63,696 bases of DNA, taken from Candidatus Woesearchaeota archaeon. GTDB taxonomy: Archaea; Nanobdellota; Nanobdellia; Woesearchaeales; GW2011-AR4. The stretch covers positions 1-63,696 of the forward strand of contig JAGVXT010000011.1 of assembly GCA_018303655.1 (NCBI GenBank). Reading direction: 5' to 3'. The notes under the pieces were generated by a model. That model ran no database searches. It was not told the DNA's origin and saw only the letters and a list, made by a program, of their open reading frames with translations. Shown piece after piece: positions 4,198-54,078 of the stretch. The translations under genes were made by a program, and so were the position numbers. Within the stretch, counting starts at the first letter, position 1, and each line of letters begins with the position of its first letter.

Positions 4198-5844
4198 TTA
4201 TCTAACATATAATGTGCCCGATTGACCCCAGCTCGTACCCGCCGTGTCGCAGCCGTTTAATGAGGGGTGCCCATAGATCAACCGGTCAGCTGGGGTTGCT
4301 GTTCCATCGGCTAGGGCCTTGATACTCCCCTGTGAGATTTGTGCCGTACCATAACCGACTGGAGGATAGGTGTACGCCTCAGCCGTACAGGCGCCACTGG
4401 CGTCCGTTGTCGCGGCGAAAGTACAACTGGTTTGGAAATACCCTATGACCGATGCGCAGGTCAAGCGATAGGCCGGACTTGCTCCGAGCTTGATCTGGTT
4501 GATCGTCGTGTCGGAATACTTCCCCTTCCCGGTCGGGCTCGTTAGGCTTCCGGAAGTTACGGCGGCCGTATTGACGTGATTCGCATTGGCTTCAATGCCA
4601 ACAACCAAAGTCCAGCCTCCATCCTGGTTGATCATATCGCAGTATGCTTGGAACGCATTATTCGTGTTCCCGTCGTTATCGGGGTCAATCCAATATATGC
4701 CGCTGCCGGTTGAAAGACCATCGTCCAAAATCTTCTTACAAGTTCTGCCTGCGTCTGTTTGGCTTGTTCCCCCCTCGCCCCCAGCGATCTTGGTCCATGT
4801 CGTACCGGTGCATCCCTGAAAGGCCGTCCCTGTCCAACGAATCGTGCCCGCTTTCGACGCGTCGCATGCGCTCATATCGTTCGCTACCTTAACCCCGCCG
4901 CTGACATCCAGCTTGGCCGCGGGGCTCGCCGTCCCGATGCCGACGTTGCCTACCTTTCCGGATTCCCGAGAAATGGTCATAGCAAGAGTCCTTGCACCAG
5001 CAACTACAGAATAAATATTTAATTCGCCTCGCAATTTTTGCTCGTGGTCAAAATCAAAACCATAATCAAGCGCAGTCGCTGACTTTATATTCAAAAATGG
5101 TTTTACAGTTGTATCGTTGGAAATAATGTTAACTGTCCCAGCAGTTCCAGAAGGAGCGAAGTTCGGTCCAACATTTATGTTACCTACAACTTGTAATTTA
5201 TTATTTGGAGATGTCGTCCCGATGCCGACGTTGCCTACTGTTGTTATTCTCACTTTTTCCGCCCCGCTTGTCCAAAAAGTAAGCGGAACATAAGAACCTG
5301 CACCAACATAATCAGCTCTAACCTGCGCAACCGATGAACCGTAATTAAGATAAACTCCATTTGTTGCACTTCCAAATATCGACTCACCATTAACATGTAA
5401 TTTGAGCAATGGCCCCGCCGTCCCGATGCCGACATTACCGCTAGCATCAATTATGAGCCTACTTATACCAGCTGTTTTATCGTATATTGAGAATTTTCCA
5501 ACGCCAATGCCGCCTGCAGAGCCTGCTGATACCAATGCATACTCTTTTCCACCACCTTCTGTGTTTTTTAGGCTTAAAAAAACCTCATTATTATTTTGCA
5601 GTTCGGTATTGCTTCCTCCCACTGACACATCACCTGCGTGTACAAGAACAGGCATGATTAAGATTAGGGCTACCGCTAGGCTAATCCTTAAAATTGAGGC
5701 AAAGAAGCTTGAAATGGATTTTTCAGTCAGTTGTGAGCGAGTTCGCAGTGAGTTGCGAGAGCTCTCCTCTCGCTCGCTCATTTCCCAGCTCACTCGCATT
5801 CGACTATTCTTTTCTTTTTTGTTTGTTATATTTGTTTTTTCCAT
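4198..5844 (-). CDS. Modular secreted fibre-like surface protein with C-terminal fibrinogen-like domain
   Basis: The 548-residue protein has a basic N-terminal segment encoded by a GC-rich repeat, a signal or anchor helix at about residues 47-70 (ending VLVHAG), then at least three copies of the beta-rich motif NVGIGT-x-x-P-x-x-KL-x-V found in fibre and adhesin shafts. Next comes SACDASKAGTIRWTG and from about residue 365 a fibrinogen-like module (CKKILDDG...AYCDMINQDGGWTLV...SWGQSGTLYVR). The gene starts with ATG 5844 after a good Shine-Dalgarno GAGGTGA and follows the prepilin gene by 11 bases, so the two are probably an operon. The last roughly 750 bases are much richer in G+C: sampled 60-base lines give 53, 58 and 62%, against 38% at 5041-5100. 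Confidence 0.8.
   Translation of the reverse strand: MEKTNITNKKEKNSRMRVSWEMSEREESSRNSLRTRSQLTEKSISSFFASILRISLAVALILIMPVLVHAGDVSVGGSNTELQNNNEVFLSLKNTEGGGKEYALVSAGSAGGIGVGKFSIYDKTAGISRLIIDASGNVGIGTAGPLLKLHVNGESIFGSATNGVYLNYGSSVAQVRADYVGAGSYVPLTFWTSGAEKVRITTVGNVGIGTTSPNNKLQVVGNINVGPNFAPSGTAGTVNIISNDTTVKPFLNIKSATALDYGFDFDHEQKLRGELNIYSVVAGARTLAMTISRESGKVGNVGIGTASPAAKLDVSGGVKVANDMSACDASKAGTIRWTGTAFQGCTGTTWTKIAGGEGGTSQTDAGRTCKKILDDGLSTGSGIYWIDPDNDGNTNNAFQAYCDMINQDGGWTLVVGIEANANHVNTAAVTSGSLTSPTGKGKYSDTTINQIKLGASPAYRLTCASVIGYFQTSCTFAATTDASGACTAEAYTYPPVGYGTAQISQGSIKALADGTATPADRLIYGHPSLNGCDTAGTSWGQSGTLYVR
4930..5439. repeat. Three near-identical DNA repeats encoding NVGIGT
   Basis: A 24-base stretch at 4930-4953 recurs without change at 5215-5238, and a shorter variant lies at 5419-5439. 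They encode the VGNVGIGT turns of the fibre shaft. Identity at DNA level, including GC-rich codons inside the AT-richer upstream part, offers a ready site for homologous exchange of the downstream module. Confidence 0.7.
5725..5808 (+). repeat. Copy 2 of the dispersed GCGAG repeat, inside a coding N-terminus
   Basis: Its first 22 bases match 7147-7168 with one mismatch, and its end (GCTCACTCGCATTCGACT) matches 7295-7312. On the minus strand it supplies about 28 codons (SRMRVSWEMSEREESS..., then RTRSQL) before the signal helix of the fibre protein, so either the repeat was inserted in frame or the gene starts inside it. Confidence 0.75.
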
Positions 5845-7146: not shown

Positions 7147-7312
7147 AGTCAGCTGTGAGCGAGTTCGCGTAGCTAAGCGAGCGAAAGAGTTGTTTGCGAG
7201 CACGAGTTGAACGCGAGCTTGCTCGTAAGATAAGCGAGCGAAAGCAAGCTTTCGCATTCCACTCTCGCAAGCATCTGAGCTTTCGCATTCCACCGCTCAC
7301 TCGCATTCGACT
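7147..7312 (+). repeat. Copy 3 of the dispersed GCGAG repeat (longest)
   Basis: A 166-base GC-rich tract built from overlapping GAGCGAG, AACGCGAGC and TTTCGCATTCCA units. Its left end matches 5725-5746, its right end matches 5788-5805, and its middle AGTTGAACGCGAGCT matches 54024-54038. It lies upstream of the prepilin gene starting at 7106. An open frame crosses it on the minus strand, but I see no sign of an independent protein. Confidence 0.7.
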
Positions 7313-14081: not shown

Positions 14082-14161
14082 TTTCAATTGCAATTTTCAA
14101 TTACAACAACTGGAACCAGTTGACATTTAATCAAGTGGGATTTTCAATCCCACGAATTTAT

Positions 14162-44899: not shown

Positions 44900-46387
44900 T
44901 TATTTTATACCTTTCAAACCCATTCCTTTCAATGATTTTAAAATATCATCTTCGTTTGAGGCGCTGGATATTGTGCAGAGCAATGCAAGGTTTTTTCTCA
45001 GTCCTATGTTTGTACCTTCAGGGGTTTCAATCGGGCAAAGCCTTCCAAGATGTGTTGGATGAAGCTCCCTTGCTTCAAAATTTTCCTGCGAGGCGCTTAA
45101 CGGGCTTACGACCCTTTGCAAATGAGATAATGTCTCAAGATAGTTCAGGCGCTGGATTCTCTGGCTTATTCCCTTTCTGCCTCCAACCCAGACTCCTGTT
45201 GCCATTGCGGAATAAATTCTCTGGGTAAGCAGCTTGTCCCTTATGATGACTTTTATGCTTGGAAATTTTCCCCTTTTGACAATCCTCTGGAAGTTGTACA
45301 ATAAGTCCCCGATTAGGACTTTCAAGTTTAACCTCAGCAAATCGGCAAGCAAATCGCCGCTCATCTTAAGCCTTTTATTCATATAATGGTCCTTGTCGTC
45401 CATGCCGATCTCGTTGTTTGAGGCGAGAATGTATTTTTTCAGCATTTTGCACAGGTTATAGGCTTTTGATATCCTGTCTTCCGGCTTTATGCCAAGATGC
45501 GGCAGCAAATATTTGTCCAGGATTTCCTTCATTCTTTCTACCCTTACTTCCTTTGACTGGGTAATGCCGATTTTTTTTGCAATGTAATCAATGGCTTCTT
45601 CCTCATTTTTTATGGATACAAACTCCAGCAGGTTGATGATGATTTCGTCAAACTGCCTTTCCGGCGAAATGAATTTTGTCAACTCTTCATCTTTCAGCAG
45701 GCCAAGCGCCTTTATCAGAACTATAATCGGGATTCTTTTCACCCTTGTAAAAGTGATGTAGAATAATCCATCCTTCATCTTCTCAACTGTATGGGGAATT
45801 TTAAACGAGCCGTATTCTGAAAATAATTTTCCTACAACCTCGCTCGGGCCTGTTGCGTCCCTTTCCATCAGGAGCCTGTTTGAAGCCAAATCCTCTATTG
45901 TGATAAGGACCTTTTCAGTTCCGTTGATTATGAAGTAGCCTCCTGGCTCATCAGGATCCTCGCCTTTTGCTATCAATTCATCTCTTGACAGCTTGTGCAG
46001 GTGACACCATCTGCTTTTCAGCATTATCGGCAAATTGCCAATCTGGGTTTCAAAGCTTTCGCGCTGCACGCCATTAATATGTGCGCTGACTGTTATCCAT
46101 GTTGGCGCAGAATAAGTTATTTTCCTTAATCTTGCCTCCATTGGGTAAATATTTCTTGATGACCCGTCAGCCTCTATCATCTTTGGCTTTTCAACCCATA
46201 TCTTATCAAGCTTTATCTTGAACTCATCTATGTTGTGAGGGATAATTGTCGGGATGATTTCTTTGTTTTCCTCTATTATGTTCAGAAGCTCCTTGTCAAT
46301 GAAATTATTGAATGACTCTATATCGGAATCTACAAAGCTCTGCTCTTCAAAATATTTCTGTATTAAGGTTTTGCCGTATTTATACAT
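44900..46387 (-). CDS. rpoB2: RNA polymerase subunit B'' (Rpo2N)
   Basis: The 495-residue N-terminal half of the second largest subunit. It contains SSRNIYPMEARLRKITYSAPTW, GYFIINGTEKVLI, and, near the end, GRLCPIETPEGTNIGLRKNLAL. The split from B' at this point is the one seen in many euryarchaeal and DPANN genomes. The start overlaps the end of rpoH by eight bases; 146 bases of T-rich spacer with two hairpins separate it from rpoB'. Confidence 0.97.
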   Translation of the reverse strand: MYKYGKTLIQKYFEEQSFVDSDIESFNNFIDKELLNIIEENKEIIPTIIPHNIDEFKIKLDKIWVEKPKMIEADGSSRNIYPMEARLRKITYSAPTWITVSAHINGVQRESFETQIGNLPIMLKSRWCHLHKLSRDELIAKGEDPDEPGGYFIINGTEKVLITIEDLASNRLLMERDATGPSEVVGKLFSEYGSFKIPHTVEKMKDGLFYITFTRVKRIPIIVLIKALGLLKDEELTKFISPERQFDEIIINLLEFVSIKNEEEAIDYIAKKIGITQSKEVRVERMKEILDKYLLPHLGIKPEDRISKAYNLCKMLKKYILASNNEIGMDDKDHYMNKRLKMSGDLLADLLRLNLKVLIGDLLYNFQRIVKRGKFPSIKVIIRDKLLTQRIYSAMATGVWVGGRKGISQRIQRLNYLETLSHLQRVVSPLSASQENFEARELHPTHLGRLCPIETPEGTNIGLRKNLALLCTISSASNEDDILKSLKGMGLKGIK

Positions 46388-46625
46388 CTGACACCACCCT
46401 GTAAAAAATCGATTCGCCTGCAGTAGGGCTTTTTCTTGTTATTTTTATGACATCCCAAAGTTTAGCGTCCAATTCTTTTATAGCTGAGTCTGTCTTTAGT
46501 ATTTTTGGCAGCTCTTTAGAAGTTACCTGATACTTTTCAAGCAGCTGTGCTTTTTCCCTTTCGCCAAGCTTTGAATGTTTTGGAGTCAGTATGTGCTTAT
46601 CAACTTTGAATTTCTGCTTCTTCAT
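46380..46625 (-). CDS. rpoH: RNA polymerase subunit H (Rpo5)
   Basis: The 81-residue archaeal subunit H, homologous to the C-terminus of eukaryotic Rpb5: VDKHILTPKHSKLGEREKAQLLEKYQVTSKELPKILKTDSAI, KITRKSPTAGESIFYRVV. It is the first gene of the polymerase operon in most archaea and starts at ATG 46625. Two intron-bearing tRNA genes lie upstream in the same orientation. Confidence 0.95.
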   Translation of the reverse strand: MKKQKFKVDKHILTPKHSKLGEREKAQLLEKYQVTSKELPKILKTDSAIKELDAKLWDVIKITRKSPTAGESIFYRVVSDV

Positions 46626-46670: not shown

Positions 46671-46819
46671 TGGGCCGGACGAGATTTCCAGGCATTGTCT
46701 GCTTCATTCGGACTCGCGACCACCTGATTAAAAGTTTCACCCCGACATTTATTTCTGTCCGGCAGGTGCTCTTTCCTGCTTGCTTTGCAAGAGCAGGTAC
46801 CAGGCTGAGCTACCGGCCC
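46671..46819 (-). tRNA. trnK-TTT: tRNA-Lys(TTT) with three introns
   Basis: Removing three segments gives a perfect 74-nt tRNA. Acceptor GGGCCGG/CCGGCCC with A73; D-stem GCTC/GAGC with loop AGCCTGGTA; anticodon stem CCTGA/TCAGG with loop CTTTTAA (anticodon TTT at 46732-46730); variable loop TGGTC; T-stem GCGAG/CTCGT with loop TCCGAAT. Exons are 46819-46798, 46771-46763, 46735-46707 and 46684-46671. Introns: 26 nt in the D-loop (46797-46772, containing CCTG...CTTGC-AAA-GCAAG-CAGG), 27 nt in the anticodon stem after position 30 (46762-46736, with a CCGGACA/TGTCGG-type stem), and 22 nt in the T-loop (46706-46685). Boundaries may shift by one or two bases. CCA is not encoded. Confidence 0.85.
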
Positions 46820-46872: not shown

Positions 46873-47006
46873 CGCCCTGGTCGGGACTTTCAAAAGCGAT
46901 GTGGTCGCATTATTTTTGAACCCGAATCGAAGCCGGTTTGTATGCGAGCTCGATAATATCCCGCATTCGACAGGGCTTCATGATAGCCGGATTACACCAC
47001 CAGGGC
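46873..47006 (-). tRNA. trnD-GTC: tRNA-Asp(GTC) with two introns
   Basis: After removing two segments a 74-nt tRNA remains: acceptor GCCCTGG/CCAGGGC with G73; D-arm GTGT...TCAT as in other archaeal tRNA-Asp; anticodon stem AAGCC/GGCTT with loop CTGTCGC (GTC at 46971-46969); variable CGAT; T-stem TCGGG/CCCGA with loop TTCAAAT. Exons are 47006-46968, 46935-46915 and 46886-46873. The first intron (46967-46936, 32 nt) is at the canonical 37/38 site and contains ATGCG...CGCAT. The second (46914-46887, 28 nt) interrupts the T-loop between positions 59 and 60, the same place as the third intron of tRNA-Lys, with GCGA-CCACA-TCGC and flanking TTCAAAA/TTTTGAA pairing. Confidence 0.85.
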
Positions 47007-47207: not shown

Positions 47208-47318
47208 ATGAAAAGAAGCTCTCGTCGATGGAAAAAAAAGAGGCAAATGCGATGGAAATGGCAGCGCAAGCGAATGAAAAAAGAGAGAAGACTGAGGAAG
47301 CAGCACAGGTCTGGGTAA
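47208..47318 (+). CDS. rpl41e: Ribosomal protein eL41-like tiny basic protein
   Basis: A 36-codon frame encodes MKRSSRRWKKKRQMRWKWQ, then RKRMKKERRLRKQHRSG, with 19 Arg/Lys residues. eL41 is a 24-26-residue single helix at the subunit interface with the same W-K-x-x-R-M/R-R-R pattern. The promoter spacing supports ATG 47208; starting instead at Met14 (MRWKWQRKRM) would give the standard length. The frame is very short, but composition and promoter both support it. Confidence 0.65.
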   Translation: MKRSSRRWKKKRQMRWKWQRKRMKKERRLRKQHRSG

Positions 47319-47393
47319 AAATTAATATTTTTCTTGATTTTATAATAGGAACAAACACAAAATTTATATTAATATAAGATTTCTCCATGCATA

Positions 47394-53996: not shown

Positions 53997-54078
53997 GAGC
54001 ACAGTGAGCTGAGCGAGCGAGAGAGTTGAACGCGAGCTCGCGTTCTCGCGAGCAGGTTGAGCTCTCGCATTCGACTAT
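53996..54078 (+). repeat. Copy 5 of the dispersed GCGAG repeat, overlapping a coding start
   Basis: Contains GAGCGAGCGAGAGAGTTGAA, then CGCGAGCTCGCGTTCTCGCGA and the end CTCTCGCATTCGACTATTT. Positions 54029-54054 are the complement of copy 1, and the end matches copy 2. The membrane protein beginning near 54057 takes its first codons from it. Confidence 0.75.

What the first reader, a model, noticed from the sequence alone, without database searches (positions are those of the whole stretch)
46873..47006. tRNA-Asp with a canonical and a T-loop intron at the same place as tRNA-Lys
Neighbouring tRNA-Asp(GTC) has a 37/38 intron and a second intron between T-loop positions 59 and 60. The T-loop insertion coincides with the third tRNA-Lys intron although the intron sequences differ, suggesting spread to, or tolerance at, a fixed tRNA site.
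Basis: partly seen in the sequence, partly recalled or inferred. Interest (0 to 1): 0.75.

Follow-up and report, generated by a model that had tools for sequence, protein, structure and literature searches.

The report
tRNA-Asp with a T-loop intron
An archaeon's only detected aspartate tRNA gene is cut by two short introns, one of them in the T-loop; the T-loop intron is shared by nearly all its relatives, is probably removed by the ordinary splicing enzyme because the T-loop mimics the usual anticodon-loop site, and hides such genes from standard tRNA finders.

Summary
Confirmed: window 47006..46873 (minus strand) is a tRNA-Asp(GUC) gene with introns at 37/38 (32 nt) and 59/60 (28 nt). The neighbouring tRNA-Lys has introns at 20/21, 30/31 and 59/60. 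The genome is a Woesearchaeales MAG. ARAGORN and Rfam miss both genes. The 59/60 intron is not a local oddity: it occurs in 62 of 70 Woesearchaeales tRNA-Asp genes in the same rpoH-rpoB'' neighbourhood and in at least 10 of about 30 tRNA genes of this genome. Its sequence is unconserved (13-168 nt), but its 3' end pairs with T54-R57: 4/4 pairs in 55 of 61 cases, against 1.4 expected after shuffling. Sites 37/38 and 59/60 are equivalent, each after nucleotide 6 of a 7-nt loop on a 5-bp stem, so tolerance at a structural hot spot explains the shared position best. No intron copying is seen in this genome; in three relatives the Asp and Lys T-loop introns are near copies, once made of a dispersed repeat. 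The order encodes one short EndA (alpha4-like, no CSL/ASL), although many T-loop motifs look relaxed, in conflict with the published enzyme-intron co-evolution rule. In passing: rtcB, the exon-ligase gene, carries its own BHB-type intron. No RNA evidence exists.

The parts
46873..47006 (-). tRNA-Asp(GUC) gene with two introns
   Evidence: splice-aware fit; orthologues
46968..47006 (-). tRNA-Asp exon 1 (positions 1-37)
46936..46967 (-). tRNA-Asp intron at canonical 37/38, 32 nt; central helix 3 of 4 pairs (C32.A mismatch), intron helix ATGCG/CGCAT
   Evidence: Asp 37/38 introns present in 39 of 69
46915..46935 (-). tRNA-Asp exon 2 (positions 38-59)
46887..46914 (-). tRNA-Asp T-loop intron at 59/60, 28 nt; 3' end TGAA pairs with T54-A57 (4/4); 3' splice-site bulge AG^T well formed, 5' bulge relaxed
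46873..46886 (-). tRNA-Asp exon 3 (position 60 to discriminator base)
46671..46819 (-). tRNA-Lys(UUU) gene with three introns (20/21, 30/31, 59/60)
46773..46798 (-). tRNA-Lys intron 20/21, 26 nt
46736..46762 (-). tRNA-Lys intron 30/31, 27 nt
46685..46706 (-). tRNA-Lys T-loop intron 59/60, 22 nt; TGGA pairs with T54-C55-C56-G57
46380..46625 (-). rpoH, downstream neighbour, part of the conserved Asp-Lys-rpoH-rpoB'' order
44900..46387 (-). rpoB'' used for named relatives and for the tree
14101..14158 (-). intergenic sequence 84% identical over about 61 nt (29 nt exact) to most of the 73-nt T-loop intron of the closest relative's tRNA-Asp (G011)

Best explanation
This is a functional tRNA-Asp(GUC) gene with two archaeal bulge-helix-bulge (BHB) introns. 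The 7-nt T-loop on its 5-bp stem is the structural equivalent of the anticodon loop, so a cut after loop nucleotide 6 (59/60) is geometrically the same site as 37/38. Any insert whose last six bases read about YGAANN pairs with the near-invariant T54-T55-C56-R57 and recreates the central 4-bp helix next to the T-stem, which exposes the 3' splice site in a 3-nt bulge. EndA (one gene) cuts and RtcB joins. The intron body is free to drift, grow and be replaced, in relatives partly by dispersed palindromic repeats. SHOWN: gene anatomy, order-wide presence, pairing rule, free bodies, one EndA gene and one RtcB gene. INFERRED: transcription, actual cleavage and ligation, and that tolerance rather than a function keeps the intron.
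For: Exact reconstruction of mature tRNA-Asp. The T-loop intron is present in 62 of 70 Woesearchaeales tRNA-Asp genes, with 4/4 central-helix pairs in 55 of 61 against 1.4 shuffled and h-stem pairs in all 61; base 57 and its intron partner co-vary (A-T 49, G-C 5, G-T 2 in Asp; G-C 20, A-T 13 in Lys), and C55 in Lys is matched by intron G in 6 of 7. At least 10 tRNA genes of this genome use the site. The best Asp-model match in the genome has the E-value expected of this gene, and no other Asp gene was found. Single EndA with the catalytic Tyr/His/Lys residues; RtcB present. The closest relative has exons 1-2 plus the 37/38 intron 98% identical but a different 73-nt T-loop intron.
Against: No RNA data: splicing is inferred. 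The 5' splice-site bulge is weak: only 20 of 61 Asp T-loop introns have an immediate helix of 2 bp or more beyond it (shuffled mean 8.7), and in the window gene RNAfold pairs A58, A59 and the first intron base with UUU. A single alpha4-like EndA without the known loops is expected to need a strict BHB (PMC6379350). The MAG is 88% complete, so a second tRNA-Asp or EndA subunit cannot be wholly excluded.
Confidence: 0.88

Rival explanations
1. The 59/60 intron is kept because it has a function, e.g. it breaks the T-arm attachment site that integrating viruses and plasmids use, or it delays RNase P action or T-loop modification until splicing.
For: Asp 59/60 is retained in 62 of 70 with only 6 state changes on the tree, against 39 of 69 and 18 changes for the canonical intron of the same gene and 43 of 72 and 19 changes for Lys 59/60. 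Sulfolobus viruses use tRNA-Asp(GUC) as an attachment site and introns have been proposed as protection (PMC4090602).
Against: Intron sequences are not conserved, so no guide-RNA-like function; several apparently independent absences, including a genome with both Asp introns missing (L095), show it is dispensable. Change counts are limited by the small number of absences, so the slower turnover is suggestive only. No attachment site was tested.
Confidence: 0.25
2. Intron sequence moved between tRNA-Asp and tRNA-Lys at this site (transposition or reverse splicing), as described for Thermoproteales.
For: In three relatives the Asp and Lys T-loop introns of one genome are near copies (L086, L089, L072; permutation P = 0.0002); in L086's genome the shared core is a dispersed repeat with about 40 matches, also in a third tRNA T-loop. 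The sister species' Asp intron shares 61 nt at 84% with intergenic DNA of this window.
Against: In the window genome the nine T-loop introns compared are mutually unrelated, and Asp and Lys share nothing beyond the pairing bases.
Confidence: 0.1
3. The gene is a decayed or disrupted pseudogene, or an assembly artefact.
For: Automated finders report nothing here.
Against: Exons are intact and identical to those of relatives (L105, L024/L106); inserts sit at BHB positions in dozens of independent assemblies; no other tRNA-Asp was found.
Confidence: 0.02

Closest known systems
Non-canonical BHB introns of archaeal tRNAs, including site 59/60 (review PMC4090602)
   Same: Same site 59/60 (20/21 and 30/31 of the Lys gene are listed there too), BHB pairing logic, several introns per gene, sequence-free bodies.
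   Different: Different lineage; near-fixed at one site of one isotype across an order; carried by a lineage with a single short EndA.
[quoted passage not shown] 2010, as cited in PMC4090602)
   Same: Near-identical introns in different tRNAs of one genome occur in three relatives.
   Different: Not in the window genome; in one relative the shared sequence is a dispersed repeat present at many other genomic places.
Permuted tRNAs joined at 59/60 in Thermofilum and Cyanidioschyzon (PMC3218864)
   Same: The same T-loop junction 59/60 is processed.
   Different: Here the gene parts are in normal order with an intron between them.
alpha4 EndA of Methanocaldococcus jannaschii (1A79)
   Same: One gene, one catalytic unit, Tyr/His/Lys residues, same loop length before His (no CSL/ASL).
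   Different: Described as of narrow specificity; the Woesearchaeal enzyme would have to process T-loop motifs with a relaxed 5' side.

Membership tests
Archaeal BHB tRNA intron | Central 4-bp helix between exon and intron at the splice sites | tested here: met
   59/60: 4/4 in the window gene; 55 of 61 orthologues against 1.4 shuffled. 37/38: 3/4.
Archaeal BHB tRNA intron | 3-nt bulge at the 3' splice site flanked by exon stem (h) and central helix (H) | tested here: met
   h 3/3 in all 61 Asp T-loop introns; RNAfold of the window T-arm shows the 3-nt bulge.
Archaeal BHB tRNA intron, strict form (hBHBh') | Second 3-nt bulge closed by an intron helix (h') | tested here: not met
   For 59/60 in the window only 1 consecutive pair; 15 of 61 orthologues are strict (H 4/4, h' at least 2 bp); so hBH-type (relaxed) by this simple geometry.
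Archaeal BHB tRNA intron | Exact removal yields a normal cloverleaf tRNA | tested here: met
Archaeal BHB tRNA intron | EndA and RtcB encoded | tested here: met
   (rtcB itself is interrupted)
Archaeal BHB tRNA intron | Cleavage and ligation observed in RNA | not testable with these tools
   no transcriptome available
alpha4-type EndA | A single catalytic gene of about 180-200 aa, no separate beta-subunit gene | tested here: met
   One PF01974 match in the window genome and one full match in nearly every relative that has any, including single-contig G044; the two in G012 are on different contigs, the second in G027 is weak and broken. A very divergent beta subunit could be missed.
alpha4-type EndA | Homotetramer, narrow specificity | not testable with these tools
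   needs purified enzyme
Broad-specificity EndA with CSL/ASL loop | Loop insertion near the active site, looked for before the catalytic His | tested here: not met
   The spacing from FR[IV]Y to His is the same in all 31 homologues checked and equal to 1A79; N. equitans alpha has 6 extra residues here. No structure model was made.
Transposed intron family (Thermoproteales type) | Near-identical introns in different tRNAs of one genome | tested here: not met
   Window genome: no similar pair among nine T-loop introns. Met in relatives L086, L089, L072.
Group I intron | Hundreds of nt with a catalytic core | tested here: not met
   28 and 32 nt; no Rfam match

The most novel reading that the evidence does not exclude
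Woesearchaeales break the published co-evolution rule: a single-gene, loop-less (alpha4-like) EndA processes relaxed BHB motifs in T-loops across the order, and their T-loop introns act as landing pads where dispersed palindromic repeats become new intron bodies, because only the last six bases and the T-arm define the splice site.
Probability: 0.4. Interest if true: 0.8.

Novelty: new member of a known kind. Interest (0 to 1): 0.55.

Why it matters
Standard finders used here miss these genes, so Woesearchaeota may look poor in tRNAs when they are not. The order is a natural test of whether enzyme type limits intron type: EndA looks narrow, yet the introns do not look strict. Equating 59/60 with 37/38 (same cut on the same hairpin geometry) explains why unrelated introns, and permuted tRNAs elsewhere, use the same T-loop position.

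Tried and rejected
Rfam at permissive E-values gave only chance hits in the gene region. Pattern searches for T-loop introns have no net excess over their reversed controls, so only hits with a full T-stem and acceptor fit were kept. A guide-RNA role was rejected because intron bodies are not conserved. A link between loss of Asp and Lys 59/60 could not be tested (too few independent pairs). In the class survey several best hits were not Asp, and the loci shown first favour intronless genes, so no frequency is given outside the order. The large inserts of rtcB in G019 and G025 lie near the DINCG site, not at the Tyr-codon intron site; open frames of 992 and 1021 aa suggest inteins, not tested further.

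Full report
WHAT IS THERE. On the minus strand, 47006..46873 is a tRNA-Asp(GUC) gene cut by a 32-nt insert at 37/38 and a 28-nt insert at 59/60; 46819..46671 is a tRNA-Lys(UUU) gene cut at 20/21, 30/31 and 59/60. ARAGORN and Rfam at gathering score report no tRNA in the window. The genome is 1.26 Mb, 88% complete, and its nearest named relatives by rpoB'' are 'Candidatus Woesearchaeota' MAGs.

THE SITE. In both loops the cut falls after nucleotide 6 of a 7-nt loop on a 5-bp stem. The archaeal BHB rule (central 4-bp helix, two 3-nt bulges; PMC4090602) then predicts that loop nucleotides 1-4 pair with bases -6 to -3 of the intron. For the T-loop those are T54-T55-C56-R57, nearly invariant in tRNAs, so a 59/60 intron should end in about YGAANN. 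It does...TTTTGAAAG|T in Asp (4/4 pairs) and ...CCTGGAAA|T in Lys, whose T-loop has C55.

IT IS ORDER-WIDE. The gene order Asp-Lys-rpoH-rpoB'' is conserved. In the named set the Asp 59/60 intron is present in 62 of 70 (window included), Lys 59/60 in 43 of 72, Asp 37/38 in 39 of 69; the fewest changes on an rpoB'' tree are 6, 19 and 18 (quick tree, many open forks). Lengths run from 13 to 168 nt. Four of four pairs hold in 55 of 61 Asp introns (shuffled mean 1.4, maximum 5) and in 32 of 42 Lys introns (shuffled 1.2); base 57 and its partner co-vary. The fit rewards BHB pairing, but the exon alignment fixes the site to within a base or two, so this bias is small. Outside the order, continuous Asp genes dominate the loci read, but 59/60 introns occur in two other families of the class (G060, G185; G164, G170).

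IN THIS GENOME. About 30 tRNA genes were located; at least ten have T-loop introns: Asp, Lys, three Pro, two Leu-like, Arg(GCG), an Ile(UAU)-like and a Val-like gene with a 70-nt intron (isotypes read by eye). Nine of these introns (all but the Val-like one) were compared and are unrelated to one another.

HOW INTRON BODIES CHANGE. The closest relative by this gene (G011) has an Asp gene 98% identical through the 37/38 intron, yet its T-loop intron is 73 nt, and about 61 nt of it match intergenic window sequence 14158..14101 at 84%. In L086, L089 and L072 the Asp and Lys T-loop introns of one genome are near copies. In L086's genome the shared core is a dispersed hairpin repeat with about 40 matches, also in a third tRNA T-loop. 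The direction of transfer is not shown.

ENZYMES. There is one EndA gene in this genome and typically one in each relative; the catalytic Tyr/His/Lys residues are present, and the loop before His has the short M. jannaschii length in all 31 checked. According to PMC6379350 only (alpha-beta)2 and epsilon2 enzymes efficiently remove relaxed BHB introns. Yet by simple geometry only 15 of 61 Asp T-loop introns are strict, against 17 of 38 at 37/38. Either this EndA is more tolerant than its type suggests, or a subunit or fold is being missed.

RTCB. The ligase gene rtcB (G000:C18:27424-28767) is itself split inside the Tyr codon of MPDGHWGYGFPIGG by 30 nt with an in-frame TGA; the insert has a 4/4 central helix and a 10-bp intron helix. 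The same site is used in G009, G001, G024, G012 and G010 (30-33 nt, not all multiples of 3), other sites in further relatives, and many relatives are continuous. PMC7714728 (2020) says that, besides its own 5'-UTR case, only cbf5 was known as an archaeal mRNA with a BHB intron. An autogenous control loop is speculation.

LIMITS. All of this is DNA-level. Named loci and G handles overlap, so counts use the named set only. Literature was searched only in the open library; no paper on BHB tRNA introns of Woesearchaeota was found there, but subscription papers and databases such as GtRNAdb could not be checked.

Noticed in passing
L282 (G000:C18:27424-28767, minus; not in the window); relatives L299, L302, L308, L311, L315: rtcB, the ligase that joins BHB exons, carries a BHB-type intron (30 nt, in-frame TGA) in the Tyr codon of PDGHWG-Y-GFPIGG; relatives have it at the same site with conserved ends (TCTGAGTAAG...CCCTTG in most), or at other sites (before Trp, in DINCG, after SPGGI), or not at all.
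   Followed up: partly
G189 (genome of L086), e.g. L250-L269: A roughly 38-nt dispersed hairpin repeat (ATGACCCTTTTNGCGAAAAGGTTCAATCCAAAAACG), about 40 matches, sits in three tRNA T-loop introns and elsewhere; it contains a T-arm-like GGTTCAATCC.
   Followed up: partly
window 46684-46735: Mature tRNA-Lys has C55 instead of the nearly universal T55 (loop TCCGAAT); seven of 42 Lys T-loop introns in relatives also follow C55, six with a matching intron G.
   Followed up: partly
window 7155-7312, 5729-5807, 54003-54078: Dispersed palindromic repeats (CTCACTCGC/GTGAGCGAGT type) shared with the neighbourhoods of several tRNA genes of this genome (L148, L139, L143, L009).
   Followed up: no
L322 (G000:C8:73692-73770): A Val-like tRNA gene with a 70-nt T-loop intron rich in GCGAG/CTCGC palindromes, and an apparent anticodon-loop intron.
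   Followed up: no
window 47209-47319: Small highly basic ORF MKRSSRRWKKKRQMRWKWQRKRMKKERRLRKQHRSG next to the tRNAs, resembling ribosomal protein eL41 by eye; not tested.
   Followed up: no
L312, L313 (G019, G025): rtcB with long in-frame insertions near the DINCG (catalytic Cys) site, 992 and 1021 aa frames, probably inteins.
   Followed up: no
L089 tRNA-Asp and tRNA-Lys: Asp 37/38, Asp 59/60 and Lys 59/60 introns share a GCGACTTTCGCTTCGCT-type element.
   Followed up: partly
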